64,000 bases of DNA from an uncultured Gemmatimonadales bacterium (GTDB lineage: Bacteria; Gemmatimonadota; Gemmatimonadetes; JACCXV01; JAHWKZ01): contig CAMYLR010000019.1 in assembly GCA_947259315.1 (NCBI GenBank), positions 65,252 through 129,251 of the forward strand. The letters run 5' to 3'. The position numbers and the translations under genes were made by a program. Below are positions 52,245 through 59,730 of this stretch, piece after piece (the first letter of the stretch is position 1; each line of letters opens with the position of its first letter). Below the pieces are notes generated by a model that did not search any database, had not been told where the DNA came from, and was given only the letters and a program-made list of their open reading frames with translations.

Positions 52245-52604
52245 ATGATGTTTCGCTTGAGAACGTTGGTCCTGGCTACTGCGGCGCTGCTACTCATTGG
52301 GGCCCCGGCTCGGGCACAGGACGACGGCCAGGTCGTCATCGACAACCCCGGCGACAGACTTGAAGATTTCTGGGATCGACGCGAAGACGTCAGGGACCGA
52401 CGTGAGGACCGCCGGGACCGGGCCGAGGACGTGGCCGACCGGCGCGAGGACATTCGCGACCGACAACACGATGGCGGAGCGCGTGATCGCATCGAAGACC
52501 GGATTGACCGACGCGAAGACTATTTCGATCGGCGTGAGAATCGGCGGGATCGACGCGAAGACGTTCGCGACCGGCGCGAAGATCGGCGCGATCGGCGCAC
52601 CTGA
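52245..52604 (+). CDS. Small secreted protein with D-R-R-E-D heptad repeats
   Basis: 119 aa. GAGGAGG precedes the ATG. Signal peptide ends A-R-A-Q. From about residue 44 to the end nearly every residue is D, R or E, in a repeating D-R-R-E-D-V-R / D-R-R-E-D-R-R pattern with a period of 7 residues (21 nt), interrupted once at about 74-80. Such alternating charge favours a single, very stable helix. Function unknown; it may bind polyanions or wall components. Confidence 0.75.
   Translation: MMFRLRTLVLATAALLLIGAPARAQDDGQVVIDNPGDRLEDFWDRREDVRDRREDRRDRAEDVADRREDIRDRQHDGGARDRIEDRIDRREDYFDRRENRRDRREDVRDRREDRRDRRT
52374..52601 (+). repeat. 21-nt coding repeat (D-R-R-E-D heptads)
   Basis: About ten imperfect 21-nt units of the form GACCGACGTGAGGACCGCCGG within the small secreted protein gene. 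Differences are mainly third-base changes, which suggests old duplications kept by selection on the protein. Confidence 0.7.
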
Positions 52605-55412: not shown

Positions 55413-56854
55413 GCGTCAGTTTGCAGTCGATCGAGCTCTCGTCGCCGCTTAATTCGACGATGCAACGACGCACCCAGATCGTCCCAAACAGCAGCCCGGT
55501 TGGTTCGATCGACGCCCCCACGCAACCGCTCTTCCAAGGTCGCACCAAACGCGCTGCCACCGGGCTGCCCCTGGGCATCGTGGACGTCAAGCAACACCGT
55601 GCCGCCGCCGGGACCGTCGTTGTAAATCCGCAGCGAGGCGACGTCGAGCGCGTCGTTCATAAACACGATCGCGGCTCCAATCTGTTCGAACGGACGCCGC
55701 GAATCGATCGTCCACCCACCGGTGTTAAAAACCTTCACCTTGCGCTCGACACCCTTCGGGGACACGATGCTCTCGAACGGTTTATGGGTATGGCCAAACA
55801 CGACTGTCAGGTCCTCGGGAACGTGCCCGATCGCCTCCTCCAACTGTCGGAATGACGGCCCAAACACGTACTTCTGTAGTCCCTTCATCGTGCTCTTGGA
55901 GTACGGTCCGTCGCGAACGAATCGCTCAGTGACGAACCGCCCAGCATACCAGTCGAGACTCTTCTTGATCACCATGCGTTCGAGCCGTTCCGACGGCAGT
56001 AATGGAAGGTCGAGTGCCTTAGCCATGCGCGCTGCAAGCTCGCTGGCGCGAGCCCGAACGTGGTCGGGATTTCGAAGCGTCAGGAACAAAGCCTCGAAGT
56101 CCCGGCCGGCTGCGCCCGAGCGCCCCAGCAACGACCAGACGAAATCGACCCATGCGTAGTTCTCGTTCTCGATCTCCTCGACCGTCGCTGGTTCCGGACG
56201 TCCAGGAAAGAGCGCACGTCGCGCGATGCTGAAGAACCGGTAGACGTCTTCGGCATAATGTCCGTGGTGAATCAGCACGCACCGATCGCTCGACTCTCGC
56301 ACCAGTGCCAGATTCGGGTAGATCACCTCGACGCTCGTGACCGGCTTCTCTCCGCCACCGATTCGAGTGGCCAGACTATTCAACAAGTCCGACGGCAATC
56401 CCGCACTGAGCAGTGGGGACGTGACATGCGACGATGGCGGAAGAGCGCGTTGTTTGTCGCTGTCCCCGACCTGGCGCGCGTAGCCGGCTTCGCGTGCGAG
56501 CTCCCAGATGTGATGATCGTGATTGCCGGGGATGTACACGATCGAGTCACACAGCTCGGCGCCAGGTTTGAACAGGCTTTCCATGAGGAAGCCAAATAGC
56601 GTAAGCGTCTCCTGGTAGGACCCGAAGGCGAGCCCGAGCCCGTCGCCCGCTACGATCAGCGTCGGGAGCTGATCACCTTCGTTTTGTTCTACGAGGTGCC
56701 GCAAACACGTAGCCAACCGCTCCAACATGGGTGCGGCGGTGGGCACGCCGTTCCCGGCACCTGGTGGTTTGAGGGGTGTCAGGACGCTCTCCTGCTCCCC
56801 CAGATGGAGGTCCGAAAGGCACACGTAGCGAATGTCGTGGCCTGGGGCTGGCAC
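55409..56854 (-). CDS. Calcineurin-like metallophosphoesterase
   Basis: 481 aa from GTG 56854, one base overlapping the VOC gene stop (TAGTG); a TTG at 56872 would add six residues. Motifs: S-D-L-H-L-G, G-D-G, G-N-H-D-H-H, H-H-G-H and G-H-T-H. The second motif, normally G-D-x-x-D, here reads A-G-D-G-L-G-L. No signal peptide; a long helical insert follows the core. Substrate unknown. Confidence 0.78.
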   Translation of the reverse strand: MPAPGHDIRYVCLSDLHLGEQESVLTPLKPPGAGNGVPTAAPMLERLATCLRHLVEQNEGDQLPTLIVAGDGLGLAFGSYQETLTLFGFLMESLFKPGAELCDSIVYIPGNHDHHIWELAREAGYARQVGDSDKQRALPPSSHVTSPLLSAGLPSDLLNSLATRIGGGEKPVTSVEVIYPNLALVRESSDRCVLIHHGHYAEDVYRFFSIARRALFPGRPEPATVEEIENENYAWVDFVWSLLGRSGAAGRDFEALFLTLRNPDHVRARASELAARMAKALDLPLLPSERLERMVIKKSLDWYAGRFVTERFVRDGPYSKSTMKGLQKYVFGPSFRQLEEAIGHVPEDLTVVFGHTHKPFESIVSPKGVERKVKVFNTGGWTIDSRRPFEQIGAAIVFMNDALDVASLRIYNDGPGGGTVLLDVHDAQGQPGGSAFGATLEERLRGGVDRTNRAAVWDDLGASLHRRIKRRRELDRLQTDA

Positions 56855-57225
56855 TACTCGTGCTGTCGACAAACGGCTTCTACGTTATTGCCGTCGGGAT
56901 CCAGAACGAACGCGCCATAGTAGTCGGGAGAATACATCTCGCGAATCCCGGGCGGGCCGTTGTCCTCGCCACCGGCCGCGATCGCGGCCGCGTAGAACGC
57001 GTCTACAAGTTCCCGATTCGGACAACCAAAGGCGACGTGGACTCTCGTGTGAAGCGGCTCGCGCTGAACGACCCAGAAGTCGGGCTTCCCCGTCTCCTTG
57101 TGCCCAAACCCGGCAGCCACGAGAAACTCTTTCACAACCTCGTACCCGAGCGGGGCTAAGGCCCGCTCGTAGAACAATCGACTTCGAGCCAGGTCAGTTA
57201 CGTTCAGAGTTACATGATCGATCAT
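56854..57225 (-). CDS. Glyoxalase/bleomycin-resistance (VOC) family protein
   Basis: 123 aa from ATG 57225. VOC pattern: I-D-H-V-T-L-N-V-T-D at the N-terminus (metal His), F-Y-E-R-A-L-A-P-L-G-Y-E, later H-V-A-F and G-A-F-V-L-D-P-D-G-N-N-V-E-A-V. One beta-alpha-beta pair per chain, so probably a dimer. Substrate unknown. Last but one gene of the operon that includes the candidate selenoprotein. Confidence 0.85.
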   Translation of the reverse strand: MIDHVTLNVTDLARSRLFYERALAPLGYEVVKEFLVAAGFGHKETGKPDFWVVQREPLHTRVHVAFGCPNRELVDAFYAAAIAAGGEDNGPPGIREMYSPDYYGAFVLDPDGNNVEAVCRQHE

Positions 57226-57226
57226 C

Positions 57227-57571
57227 TCACTGCTCCGTGGTGTGGGACCAGACAAACCCTTCTTGTTCAGGATCGTAGATCCAGATCTTGTGCCAAGGTT
57301 CGCCTCGTGCCTCGCCGCCTAGCACTCGAAGGTCCGGGTGACCGTCCCCGTCGACATCAGTCAACTCAGTAGCGCCTGGTTCCGACGGATTGATGCTGTT
57401 GCGAACCTCGATGATCTGAACGACGGCCCGGTCTTCCTTCCGAATCACATCGAGCTCGTAATTCATGTCTTGCTGGTGGCGCACCTGGATCTCGTGACTT
57501 GGCTGATTCACGCCGTCGGTACAATCGATGGCTAACAGAACCGCGCATATCGTCAACGCCTGCCTATTCAT
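57227..57571 (-). CDS. Small secreted or lipoprotein-like protein with a calcium-type repeat
   Basis: 114 aa from ATG 57571, overlapping the selenoprotein stop (ATGA). N-terminal hydrophobic stretch ends A-I-D-C, an imperfect lipobox. The middle reads D-V-D-G-D-G-H-P-D-L, as in FG-GAP/VCBS-type or dockerin-like calcium loops. Unknown function. Confidence 0.65.
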   Translation of the reverse strand: MNRQALTICAVLLAIDCTDGVNQPSHEIQVRHQQDMNYELDVIRKEDRAVVQIIEVRNSINPSEPGATELTDVDGDGHPDLRVLGGEARGEPWHKIWIYDPEQEGFVWSHTTEQ

Positions 57572-58164
57572 CCCGTTTCCTTTGGCGTGCCACCCCACGT
57601 AGGAATAAACGTCTCCGCCTCGACGCCCAACGCGTCGGCGATGCGGCTGATGTAGTTGAAGTAACCGATCACTTGGACCGCGTCGTGTATCGCATCATCA
57701 CCAAGTCCGTGCTCCCGCAGCGCATCCAGGTCCGCGGGTGCCATATCGTGTTGCTGGTGGGTCAGCTTGGTCGCGAACACACAAAGCTCGCGATCAACTT
57801 CTGACAACCGAGCTGAGCGCCAATCTCTCGCTACCGCATGCACGTAGGCATCGGCCTCATCTCCCGCCGTGAACTGATCCGCGATCTCTTCCCGGAGATC
57901 GTTGGCATGGGCTTGCGTTCAATAGTGACAGTCGAGCTCGGAGGAAACAACGGTCGCCAAGAGCTCTCGCTGTGCGCGCGTTAGCGGCGACCGGCCGCGC
58001 ATTATGTCGATGTACAACCGCATGCTCGACTCCAGTACGCGCGGGTTGAGGCTCATGATGTGAACGATGTTCCACACCCGACCGGCACGACGGATGGCGG
58101 CATCGAAATGCTCGCGCAGCCGACCGGTAGCGTGGTCGATCGGAACTTGGTGAATCCAAGGCAT
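57568..58164 (-). CDS. AhpD/CMD-family peroxidase-related candidate selenoprotein, in-frame TGA read as Sec
   Basis: 198 residues if the TGA at 57919-57921 (codon 82) is read as selenocysteine. The N-terminal part has the family phrase G-R-V-W-N-I-V-H-I-M-S-L-N-P-R. The redox site reads E-L-D-C-H-Y-U-T-Q-A-H, i.e. C79-x-x-U82-x3-H86, where family members carry C-x-x-C-x3-H. The same frame then continues without another stop through A-N-D-L-R-E-E-I to a normal-length C-terminus (Y-F-N-Y-I-S-R-I-A-D-A-L-G-V). A hairpin fitting a SECIS lies 17 nt after the TGA. Expected to reduce peroxides. Selenocysteine AhpD-like proteins are known. The alternative is a nonsense mutation or sequencing error. 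Confidence 0.8.
57882..57901 (-). promoter_or_regulatory. Candidate bacterial SECIS hairpin
   Basis: On the minus strand CGATCTC-CGGGAA-GAGATCG: a perfect 7-bp stem with a 6-base loop. It begins 17 nt after the TGA; the loop begins 24 nt after it, with G at the second loop position. Bacterial SECIS hairpins sit just downstream of the UGA within the coding region and usually carry a G in the first two loop positions for SelB binding. Confidence 0.65.
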
Positions 58165-58173
58165 GCCTGTTCT

Positions 58174-59730
58174 CTACTTTCGCGGGTCGATCGGTGTCAA
58201 CACACCGAGCTCGTTCTCGATCGCCTCGGCGGCGTCCAAACACAAGTCCTCCCGATAGAGCGGGCCGATCACCTGAACGGCCTGCGGTAGCCCGTTAGCG
58301 AGTCCCACTGGCACGGCGGCCGCCGGAAGCCCGAGCAAGTTCGCGGTCACGACAAGCCGCATCGAGCGAAGTAATAACAAAACGGCGTCCGTTCCCCTCA
58401 GATCAGCACCGACGGCGAACGGTTGCTGGGTGGAAACGGGACCCAGAACCAACGGATACTCCTGCGCGAAGTGCGTCCACTGGCGCGCGATCCCGTTTCG
58501 ATCCGCTAACGCGCGCATGTAGCCGCGCAAGCTCAACTCGGGCACCACCGAGAAAAAGTCGTCCAGCATCCTGTACGAATCCCGAGCCAAGAGTTCTTGC
58601 ACCGCGGGTACGAAATCGGTACTCAGCTCGGCTGCCACCAAGCGAGCCCAGAGAGCAGCCGCTTCATCGACCGCCGGCAGATCCACCTCCTCGACCGCAT
58701 AGCCAGCGTTCGACAACACGTCGGCCGCCTTTCGCACACCATCGGCGATGTCCGGATCGGTTCCCTGTCCACCCGGATCCGTCGTCACCGCCACTCTGAT
58801 CGGACCACCCACGGACGGTCCCTCGAGCGGGGCCGGGACCCACCAGGGATCCCGTGGGTCTGGCCCGCTCATCGCGGCAAGAGCGACCCGTAGATCGCGA
58901 ACGTGGCGTGCCATCGGCCCGTTGGTCGCAAACAGCTGAATGGTGATCGAAAACTCGGCCGGCGCCATCGCTGACCTGTCGGGAACGCGCCCCCGCGTAG
59001 GCCGAATCGAGCACACCCCGCAACATTGAGCTGGGTAGCGAAGCGAGCCGCCGTAGTCGTTTCCGACACCCAGCGGGGTCATTCCCAACGCCAGAGCGAC
59101 GGCCTCACCGCCACTCGATCCGCCAGGAGTCCGCGTGCGGACCCACGGGTTCGCCGTCGCCCCACGCAGCGAGCTCTTGGTATGCCACCGCAACGCGAAG
59201 TCAGGCATATTCGTGCGCGCCAGCGGGATCGCGCCGGCGGCCTTGAGCTGGGCGACGAGCGGCGCGTCAACCGGCGGAATTTCTCCTTCAAGTCCAAGAA
59301 CACCCATCGTCGTCGCCGACCCCGCGACATCGATGTTCTCCTTGATCGTGAACGGAACACCGTGCAACGGACCGATCTCTTTCCCGAAGTCGATGGCCCG
59401 GTCCGCTTCTTCTGCGGCTCGCATCGCTGGTTCCTCGAGCACCACCGTAATCGCGTTTACCGCCGAATTGACCTTCTCGATCCGCTCCAGGTGGGACTCT
59501 ACAACAGCTCGGCTGGTGATCCGGCGATCGCGGATCGCAGCCGCCAATTCGGATGCCGACATTACCCACGGCTCATCGCCCATCGTCGGCGTGGGTTGTG
59601 GAACTCGAGCAGATTGCGTTGTAGTCGCCCACAGCTCATCCAACCGCAAATCGGGGATGAGCGCCGCGGTCGATGATGCGAGCCCGTAACCGAGCAGCGC
59701 ACGACGGGAGATCGGACCCTTGATATCCAT
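58174..59730 (-). CDS. Amidase signature family enzyme, probably Tat-exported
   Basis: 518 aa. N-terminus carries [10 protein letters not shown], a twin-arginine-like signal, then a hydrophobic stretch. Catalytic triad: Lys in T-I-K-E-N-I-D, cis-Ser and nucleophile Ser in P-G-G-S-S-G-G-E and G-N-D-Y-G-G-S-L-R. Hydrolyses an amide, maybe of a wall or peptide substrate. First gene of the operon; the candidate selenoprotein starts 9 bases after it. Confidence 0.85.

What the first reader, a model, noticed from the sequence alone, without database searches (positions are those of the whole stretch)
57568..58164. Candidate selenoprotein: AhpD/CMD-family protein with in-frame TGA at the second redox cysteine
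Two ORFs on the minus strand (81 and 91 residues) are in the same frame and together make one normal-length AhpD-type peroxidase-related protein. The only interruption is a TGA at codon 82. It lies exactly where C-x-x-C-x3-H family members have the second catalytic Cys, giving C-H-Y-U-T-Q-A-H. No other stop or frame change is needed, and sequence on both sides is conserved-looking. A random nonsense mutation hitting precisely this codon is unlikely. Without the Sec reading the annotation would split it into two false short ORFs.
Basis: partly seen in the sequence, partly recalled or inferred. Interest (0 to 1): 0.88.

Follow-up and report, generated by a model that had tools for sequence, protein, structure and literature searches.

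The report
AhpD-like selenoprotein in a Gemmatimonadota bacterium
A gene that looks broken by a stop codon almost certainly encodes one intact antioxidant-type enzyme that carries selenocysteine, the 21st amino acid, in its active site; it is a well-supported member of an already known selenoprotein family.

Summary
The minus-strand ORF at 57568-58164 has one in-frame TGA, at codon 82 (57919-57921), in C79-H-Y-U82-x3-H86. Read through, it is a 198-residue protein that passes the TIGR01926 "peroxidase-related" cut-off and folds like D. radiodurans AhpD (6k40). The genome, a Gemmatimonadota MAG, encodes tRNA-Sec(TCA), SelA, SelB and SelD, and its SelD also has an in-frame TGA. All 80 nearest named-collection relatives, from several phyla, keep TGA at this codon. 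Selection is purifying on both sides of it. A hairpin fitting the published bacterial SECIS model lies 24 nt downstream. It has a 6-7 bp stem and a C-G-[G/T]-G loop, is frozen at synonymous sites, and shows compensatory C-G/U-A change. Cys-containing paralogues lack the hairpin's fixed codons, and the three of their genomes tested lack a detectable tRNA-Sec. A second AhpD-like selenoprotein gene lies elsewhere in the genome. AhpD-like CxxU proteins of TIGR01926/COG2128 have been a published selenoprotein family since 2005, so this is a new member of a known kind. It adds an all-Sec sample of relatives and a clear RNA-level SECIS signature. Substrate and reductant remain unknown; nothing is shown at protein level.

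The parts
57568..58164 (-). Complete AhpD-like selenoprotein gene, 198 aa plus TGA stop, read through the internal TGA
   Evidence: TIGR01926 120.4 bits (cut-off 81.8); Pfam CMD 44.8 bits; AlphaFold pLDDT 92.6; closest PDB fold 6k40
57919..57921 (-). In-frame TGA read as selenocysteine (codon 82, second redox position of CxxU)
   Evidence: Same codon TGA in 80/80 nearest named-collection relatives and in the top class matches; Cys in PDB and Cys-form homologues
57928..57930 (-). Cys79, first residue of the CxxU motif
   Evidence: Invariant in alignment A4
57882..57901 (-). SECIS hairpin: stem CGAUCUC/GAGAUCG, 6-nt loop CGGGAA, loop starting 25 nt after UGA
   Evidence: Fold -8.9 kcal/mol, z -2.6; consensus fold; compensatory pair and frozen synonymous sites; meets the bSECIS model quoted in PMC13188914
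57568..57571 (-). ATGA overlap of the selenoprotein stop with the start of the next ORF (57227-57571), suggesting coupled translation
   Evidence: order kept in congener
58174..59730 (-). Amidase-family gene (PF01425, NF005687) ending 9 bp upstream of the selenoprotein start; probable operon partner in this genus
   Evidence: same order in L023/L054
57227..57571 (-). Small 114-aa ORF with hydrophobic N-terminus (lipoprotein-like), no Pfam family
56854..57240 (-). VOC/glyoxalase-fold protein (PF00903), overlaps the preceding ORF

Best explanation
The locus encodes one AhpD-like (TIGR01926) selenoprotein. SelB carrying Sec-tRNA binds the hairpin just downstream of UGA82 and decodes that UGA as selenocysteine, giving a C79-x-x-U82-x3-H86 redox centre in an all-helical AhpD/CMD fold. 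The selenol most likely takes the role of the second Cys of the AhpD CxxC pair, with Cys79 as its partner in a reversible selenenylsulfide, in reduction of peroxides or in passing electrons to a peroxidase. Shown here: gene structure, conservation of the TGA, hairpin, complete Sec machinery, predicted fold. Inferred: actual Sec insertion, which residue attacks the substrate, the physiological substrate and the reductant.
For: Single in-frame TGA in an otherwise intact frame. tRNA-Sec(TCA) 75.3 bits, SelB 372 bits, SelA 472 bits, SelD 366 bits, all over cut-off; SelD carries its own in-frame TGA. TIGR01926 over cut-off. Congener keeps TGA at 86% identity, with dN/dS 0.057 before and 0.109 after it. 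TGA in all 80 nearest relatives in the named collection. SECIS: all six pairs in 75 of 79 sequences; CTC at codon 90 in 79/79, CGG/CGT at codon 91 in 79/79, GAG at codon 93 in 79/79; C-G in 60 and U-A in 15, U-G in 1, against 3 non-pairs, at the varying pair. Cys paralogues L134-L137 lack the SECIS codons; tRNA-Sec found at E<1e-11 in 54 of 61 genomes with TGA forms and 0 of 3 with Cys forms. AhpD fold: TM 0.83 to 6k40, whose CxxC matters for H2O2 resistance in vivo (PMC8945050).
Against: No protein-level evidence. Hairpin energy over a longer 68-nt stretch is not unusual (z 0.06), so the SECIS case rests on conservation rather than stability. 7 of 61 genomes with TGA forms gave no strong tRNA-Sec hit, which may be MAG incompleteness or the stricter filters of that search. 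The Cys-form comparison is small (4 genes, 3 genomes). Relatedness inflates the covariation and co-occurrence P values.
Confidence: 0.96

Rival explanations
1. Pseudogene or sequencing error: TGA is a nonsense mutation or miscall of TGC/TGT, and the gene is dead or really encodes Cys.
For: A Cys codon is one base away from TGA and metagenome assemblies contain errors; frameshifted copies exist (L090; G119).
Against: Same TGA in the congener and in 80/80 nearest relatives; purifying selection on both sides; SECIS conserved at synonymous sites.
Confidence: 0.01
2. UGA is read as another amino acid (reassigned code or plain readthrough), not selenocysteine.
For: The frame is open under any UGA-sense code.
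Against: The gene itself ends in TGA, the SelA and SelB frames contain no internal stops, the only family residue at this column besides TGA is Cys, and the full Sec pathway and a SECIS are present.
Confidence: 0.01
3. Two-product gene: UGA82 serves partly as a regulated stop, giving a short 81-residue product in low selenium besides the full selenoprotein.
For: UGA recoding is partial by nature; 30-40% recoding in vivo is reported in the abstract of PMC4513850.
Against: The fragment would lack U82 and the helices after it, so a function is unlikely; no sequence feature points to a separate product.
Confidence: 0.02
4. Same selenoprotein, but its reaction is not peroxide reduction: CMD-fold proteins include other redox enzymes (for example the debrominase Bmp8, 6ohi), and the amidase/VOC neighbourhood could mean a catabolic or detoxifying substrate.
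For: Bmp8 is among the structural matches; the amidase and VOC neighbours are retained in the congener.
Against: Closest structure and subfamily are the AhpD-like peroxidase-related proteins; no close match to the amidase or VOC gene was found beside the gene in other relatives.
Confidence: 0.25

Closest known systems
AhpD-like selenoprotein family (TIGR01926 / COG2128, CxxU; 'AhpD-like protein' of the Sargasso Sea, 'AhpD-like 1' of GOS)
   Same: Same NCBI subfamily over its cut-off, CxxU motif, downstream bacterial SECIS (PMC1088965, PMC2398784, PMC13188914)
   Different: No documented Gemmatimonadota member was found in the papers read; the sample of its nearest relatives contains no Cys form, whereas the family at large has more Cys (902) than Sec (299) members in GOS (PMC2398784)
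NF041238 AhpD_rel_CFYUT alkylhydroperoxidase-related (seleno)protein
   Same: Matches its C-terminal half (positions 152-337 of 357); same C-x-Y-U-T signature
   Different: 76 bits against a cut-off of 175; lacks the N-terminal ~150 residues; not a member
D. radiodurans AhpD DR_1765 type (PDB 6k40) and 2oyo, 2pfx, 3c1l, 2prr
   Same: Fold (TM 0.79-0.83) and the Glu/CxxC/His layout
   Different: CxxC instead of CxxU; 22-34% identity in the structural alignments
Classical M. tuberculosis AhpD (PDB 1gu9)
   Same: E-x11-C-x2-C/U-x3-H spacing (the M. tuberculosis spacing is from general knowledge)
   Different: Weak fold match (E 0.035, TM 0.43); belongs to a different subfamily (TIGR00777 not matched)

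Membership tests
TIGR01926 peroxidase-related (AhpD-like) subfamily | HMM score over the curated cut-off of 81.8 bits | tested here: met
   120.4 bits, residues 2-182
TIGR01926 peroxidase-related (AhpD-like) subfamily | CxxC/CxxU-x3-H redox motif in a CMD fold | tested here: met
   C79, U82, H86 invariant in A4; CMD fold
Bacterial selenoprotein | In-frame UGA aligned with Cys of homologues | tested here: met
   Cys; TGA
Bacterial selenoprotein | bSECIS: 4-16 bp stem, 3-9 nt loop, G in the first two loop positions, loop 16-37 nt after UGA | tested here: met
   6-7 bp, 6-nt loop CGGGAA, 24 nt spacing; model as quoted in PMC13188914; its free-energy limit was not tested
Bacterial selenoprotein | Genome encodes SelA, SelB, SelC (tRNA-Sec) and SelD | tested here: met
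Bacterial selenoprotein | Selenium in the protein | not testable with these tools
   Needs mass spectrometry or 75Se labelling
NF041238 AhpD_rel_CFYUT | Score over the cut-off of 175 bits across 357 positions | tested here: not met
   76 bits, C-terminal half only; 69.3 bits, below cut-off, in the genome search
Classical AhpD (TIGR00777) | Score over the cut-off | tested here: not met
   No match reported for P0001 at E<=0.001

The most novel reading that the evidence does not exclude
This branch of AhpD-like proteins is an ancient, essentially obligate selenocysteine clade shared across Gemmatimonadota, Chloroflexi, Planctomycetota and others, in which Sec is never replaced by Cys because the reaction needs a selenol, and whose substrate may not be a simple peroxide.
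Probability: 0.3. Interest if true: 0.45.

Novelty: new member of a known kind. Interest (0 to 1): 0.27.

Why it matters
Ordinary annotation would split this gene, and its many relatives, into two short ORFs. It adds a solid selenoprotein in a phylum for which no selenoprotein study was found, and a clean example of a SECIS detectable from frozen synonymous sites and compensatory change inside a coding sequence. If the all-Sec pattern holds, the clade offers a test of where selenium cannot be replaced by sulphur.

Tried and rejected
Pseudogene, sequencing error and code reassignment were rejected (see rivals). The 68-nt fold showed no unusual stability; only the 25-nt hairpin did (z -2.6). An initial automated tally of codon 82 was offset by one codon and was redone from the match coordinates. 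The one apparent exception, L090, was checked and has the TGA, followed by a frameshift. Membership of NF041238 was tested and rejected. Other TGA-interrupted frames in the window with a CxxU/UxxC context (10708 +, 58666 -, 12716 -) were not followed up; 58666 lies inside the amidase gene, in another frame, and looks like chance. No tRNA or Rfam element was found in the window itself.

Full report
What is there. On the minus strand, 58164 to 57568, one frame runs from ATG through 81 codons, a TGA at 57919-57921, 116 more codons, and a terminal TGA. No other stop or frameshift is needed.

What the protein is. Read through (TGA taken as Cys for the programs), the product scores 120.4 bits against TIGR01926 (cut-off 81.8) and 44.8 bits against Pfam CMD. 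Relatives of known structure (6k40, 2oyo, 2pfx) carry Cys exactly where the TGA lies. AlphaFold gives pLDDT 92.6, pTM 0.89, and the best PDB match is D. radiodurans AhpD 6k40, TM 0.83. Glu67, Cys79, residue 82 and His86 are invariant in a 22-row alignment. Their spacing equals that of the catalytic residues of M. tuberculosis AhpD (general knowledge, not tested here).

The genome makes selenocysteine. The window lies in a 2.4 Mb assembly of 33 contigs, 96% complete. It has a tRNA-Sec with anticodon TCA (75.3 bits), SelB (372 bits), SelA (472 bits) and SelD (366 bits), all over the curated cut-offs. SelD itself has an in-frame TGA near its N-terminus, in the context CAG-U-ASKL. So at least three genes here appear to use the codon this way: SelD, the window gene and the paralogue at C31:85203-85739 (45% identity, CHYU).

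Conservation of the codon. The only same-genus genome with a match keeps TGA at 86% protein identity. NG86 dN/dS between the two is 0.057 before and 0.109 after the TGA, so both halves are under purifying selection as one protein. In 394 genomes of the class, every listed match of 53% identity or more that covers this codon has the TGA; the one listed without a stop (G119) is the downstream piece of a frameshifted copy whose upstream piece has the TGA. A scan of named genomes with a profile of the part after the TGA returned 80 loci, titled Gemmatimonadota, Chloroflexi/Anaerolineae, Planctomycetota, Actinomycetota, Krumholzibacteria and others. Of these, 79 have TGA at codon 82 by coordinate, and the eightieth, L090, has it too, followed by a frameshift. 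The closest record is a Gemmatimonadota MAG (CSMAG_2013), which places the window in that phylum. The profile was built from Sec forms, which biases the sample towards them.

The SECIS. Nineteen nucleotides after the UGA begins the stem GAUCUC, then loop CGGGAA, then GAGAUC, extendable by one C-G pair. The published bacterial model asks for a 4-16 bp stem, a 3-9 nt loop, a G in the first two loop positions (often followed by G or U), and 16-37 nt of spacing (PMC13188914). All are met; the model's free-energy limit was not checked. Across 79 relatives all six pairs form in 75. At the third pair C-G occurs 60 times, U-A 15 times and U-G once, with 3 non-pairs (Fisher P 7e-14, not corrected for relatedness). 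Codon 90 is CTC in 79/79, codon 91 CGG or CGT in 79/79 and codon 93 GAG in 79/79. In the 30-sequence set, Leu90 and Arg91 have codon entropies of 0 and 0.47 bits against 2.03 and 2.17 expected from the same genes, while most other invariant Leu and Arg columns vary freely. CGG/CGT gives a loop C-G-[G/U]-G, the preferred SECIS loop. The paralogue and the G002 relative form hairpins at a slightly different place, also with GG in or beside the loop.

Cys forms as control. Four Cys-containing paralogues (about 40% identity) were read. They have TGC at this codon and none has the CTC-CG[G/T]-GAG signature. Three of their genomes were in the tRNA-Sec survey and show only tRNA-Ser-level background (best E 3.5e-8 to 3.6e-7), against 54 of 61 surveyed genomes with TGA forms at E < 1e-11 (Fisher P 0.003; counted by hand from the two tables).

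Neighbourhood. Upstream lies an amidase (NF005687) ending 9 bp before the start. Downstream, an ATGA overlap leads to a small lipoprotein-like ORF, then a VOC-fold protein and a metallophosphoesterase. The order is the same in the congener (L023/L054), but tblastn found no such neighbourhood in the other relatives. The ATGA overlap fits ribosomes reaching the second TGA.

Mechanism and limits. The likeliest reading is SelB-dependent Sec insertion and a selenol-thiol pair doing AhpD-type redox chemistry. For the D. radiodurans relative, loss raises H2O2 sensitivity and the CxxC residues matter (PMC8945050); transfer to this protein is inference. The electron donor, the substrate and the identity of the attacking residue are open.

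Known or new. AhpD-like CxxU selenoproteins of COG2128/TIGR01926 were reported from the Sargasso Sea in 2005 (27 sequences, PMC1088965), were fourth most numerous in GOS (299 Sec, 902 Cys, PMC2398784), and are listed with TIGR01926 in a 2026 review (PMC13188914). A search for selenoprotein work naming Gemmatimonadota found no paper on the subject in the held library. This is therefore a new member of a known kind, with unusually clear evidence. The modest extra is the uniform use of Sec among the nearest relatives.

Noticed in passing
L025 (G000:C31:85203-85739, - strand): Second AhpD-like gene in the same genome with in-frame TGA at CHY-U; TIGR01926 160.8 bits; its own hairpin ACGGAG-CGGGU-CUCCGU lies just downstream of the TGA.
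   Followed up: partly
L016 (G000:C6:214406-215329, - strand): SelD of this genome is itself a selenoprotein gene (in-frame TGA, context RCAG-U-ASKL).
   Followed up: partly
L102, L107, L121, L122 versus L081, L087, L093, L108, L120: Four MAGs titled Gammaproteobacteria carry AhpD-like genes almost identical just after the TGA to Gemmatimonadota (BD2-11 clade) ones, suggesting mislabelled or contaminated bins, or recent transfer.
   Followed up: no
L024 (G002:C94:7281-7727): Same-family genome has an AhpD-like Sec gene with a shortened N-terminal region, closer to the second paralogue type.
   Followed up: no
window 57227-57571 (-): 114-aa ORF without a Pfam family, hydrophobic N-terminus and a DVDGDGHPDL (FG-GAP/EF-hand-like) stretch, start overlapping the selenoprotein stop; kept at 77% identity in the congener.
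   Followed up: partly
window 52245-52604 (+): Low-complexity ORF built of repeated RREDxRDRRED-like units after a signal-like N-terminus.
   Followed up: no
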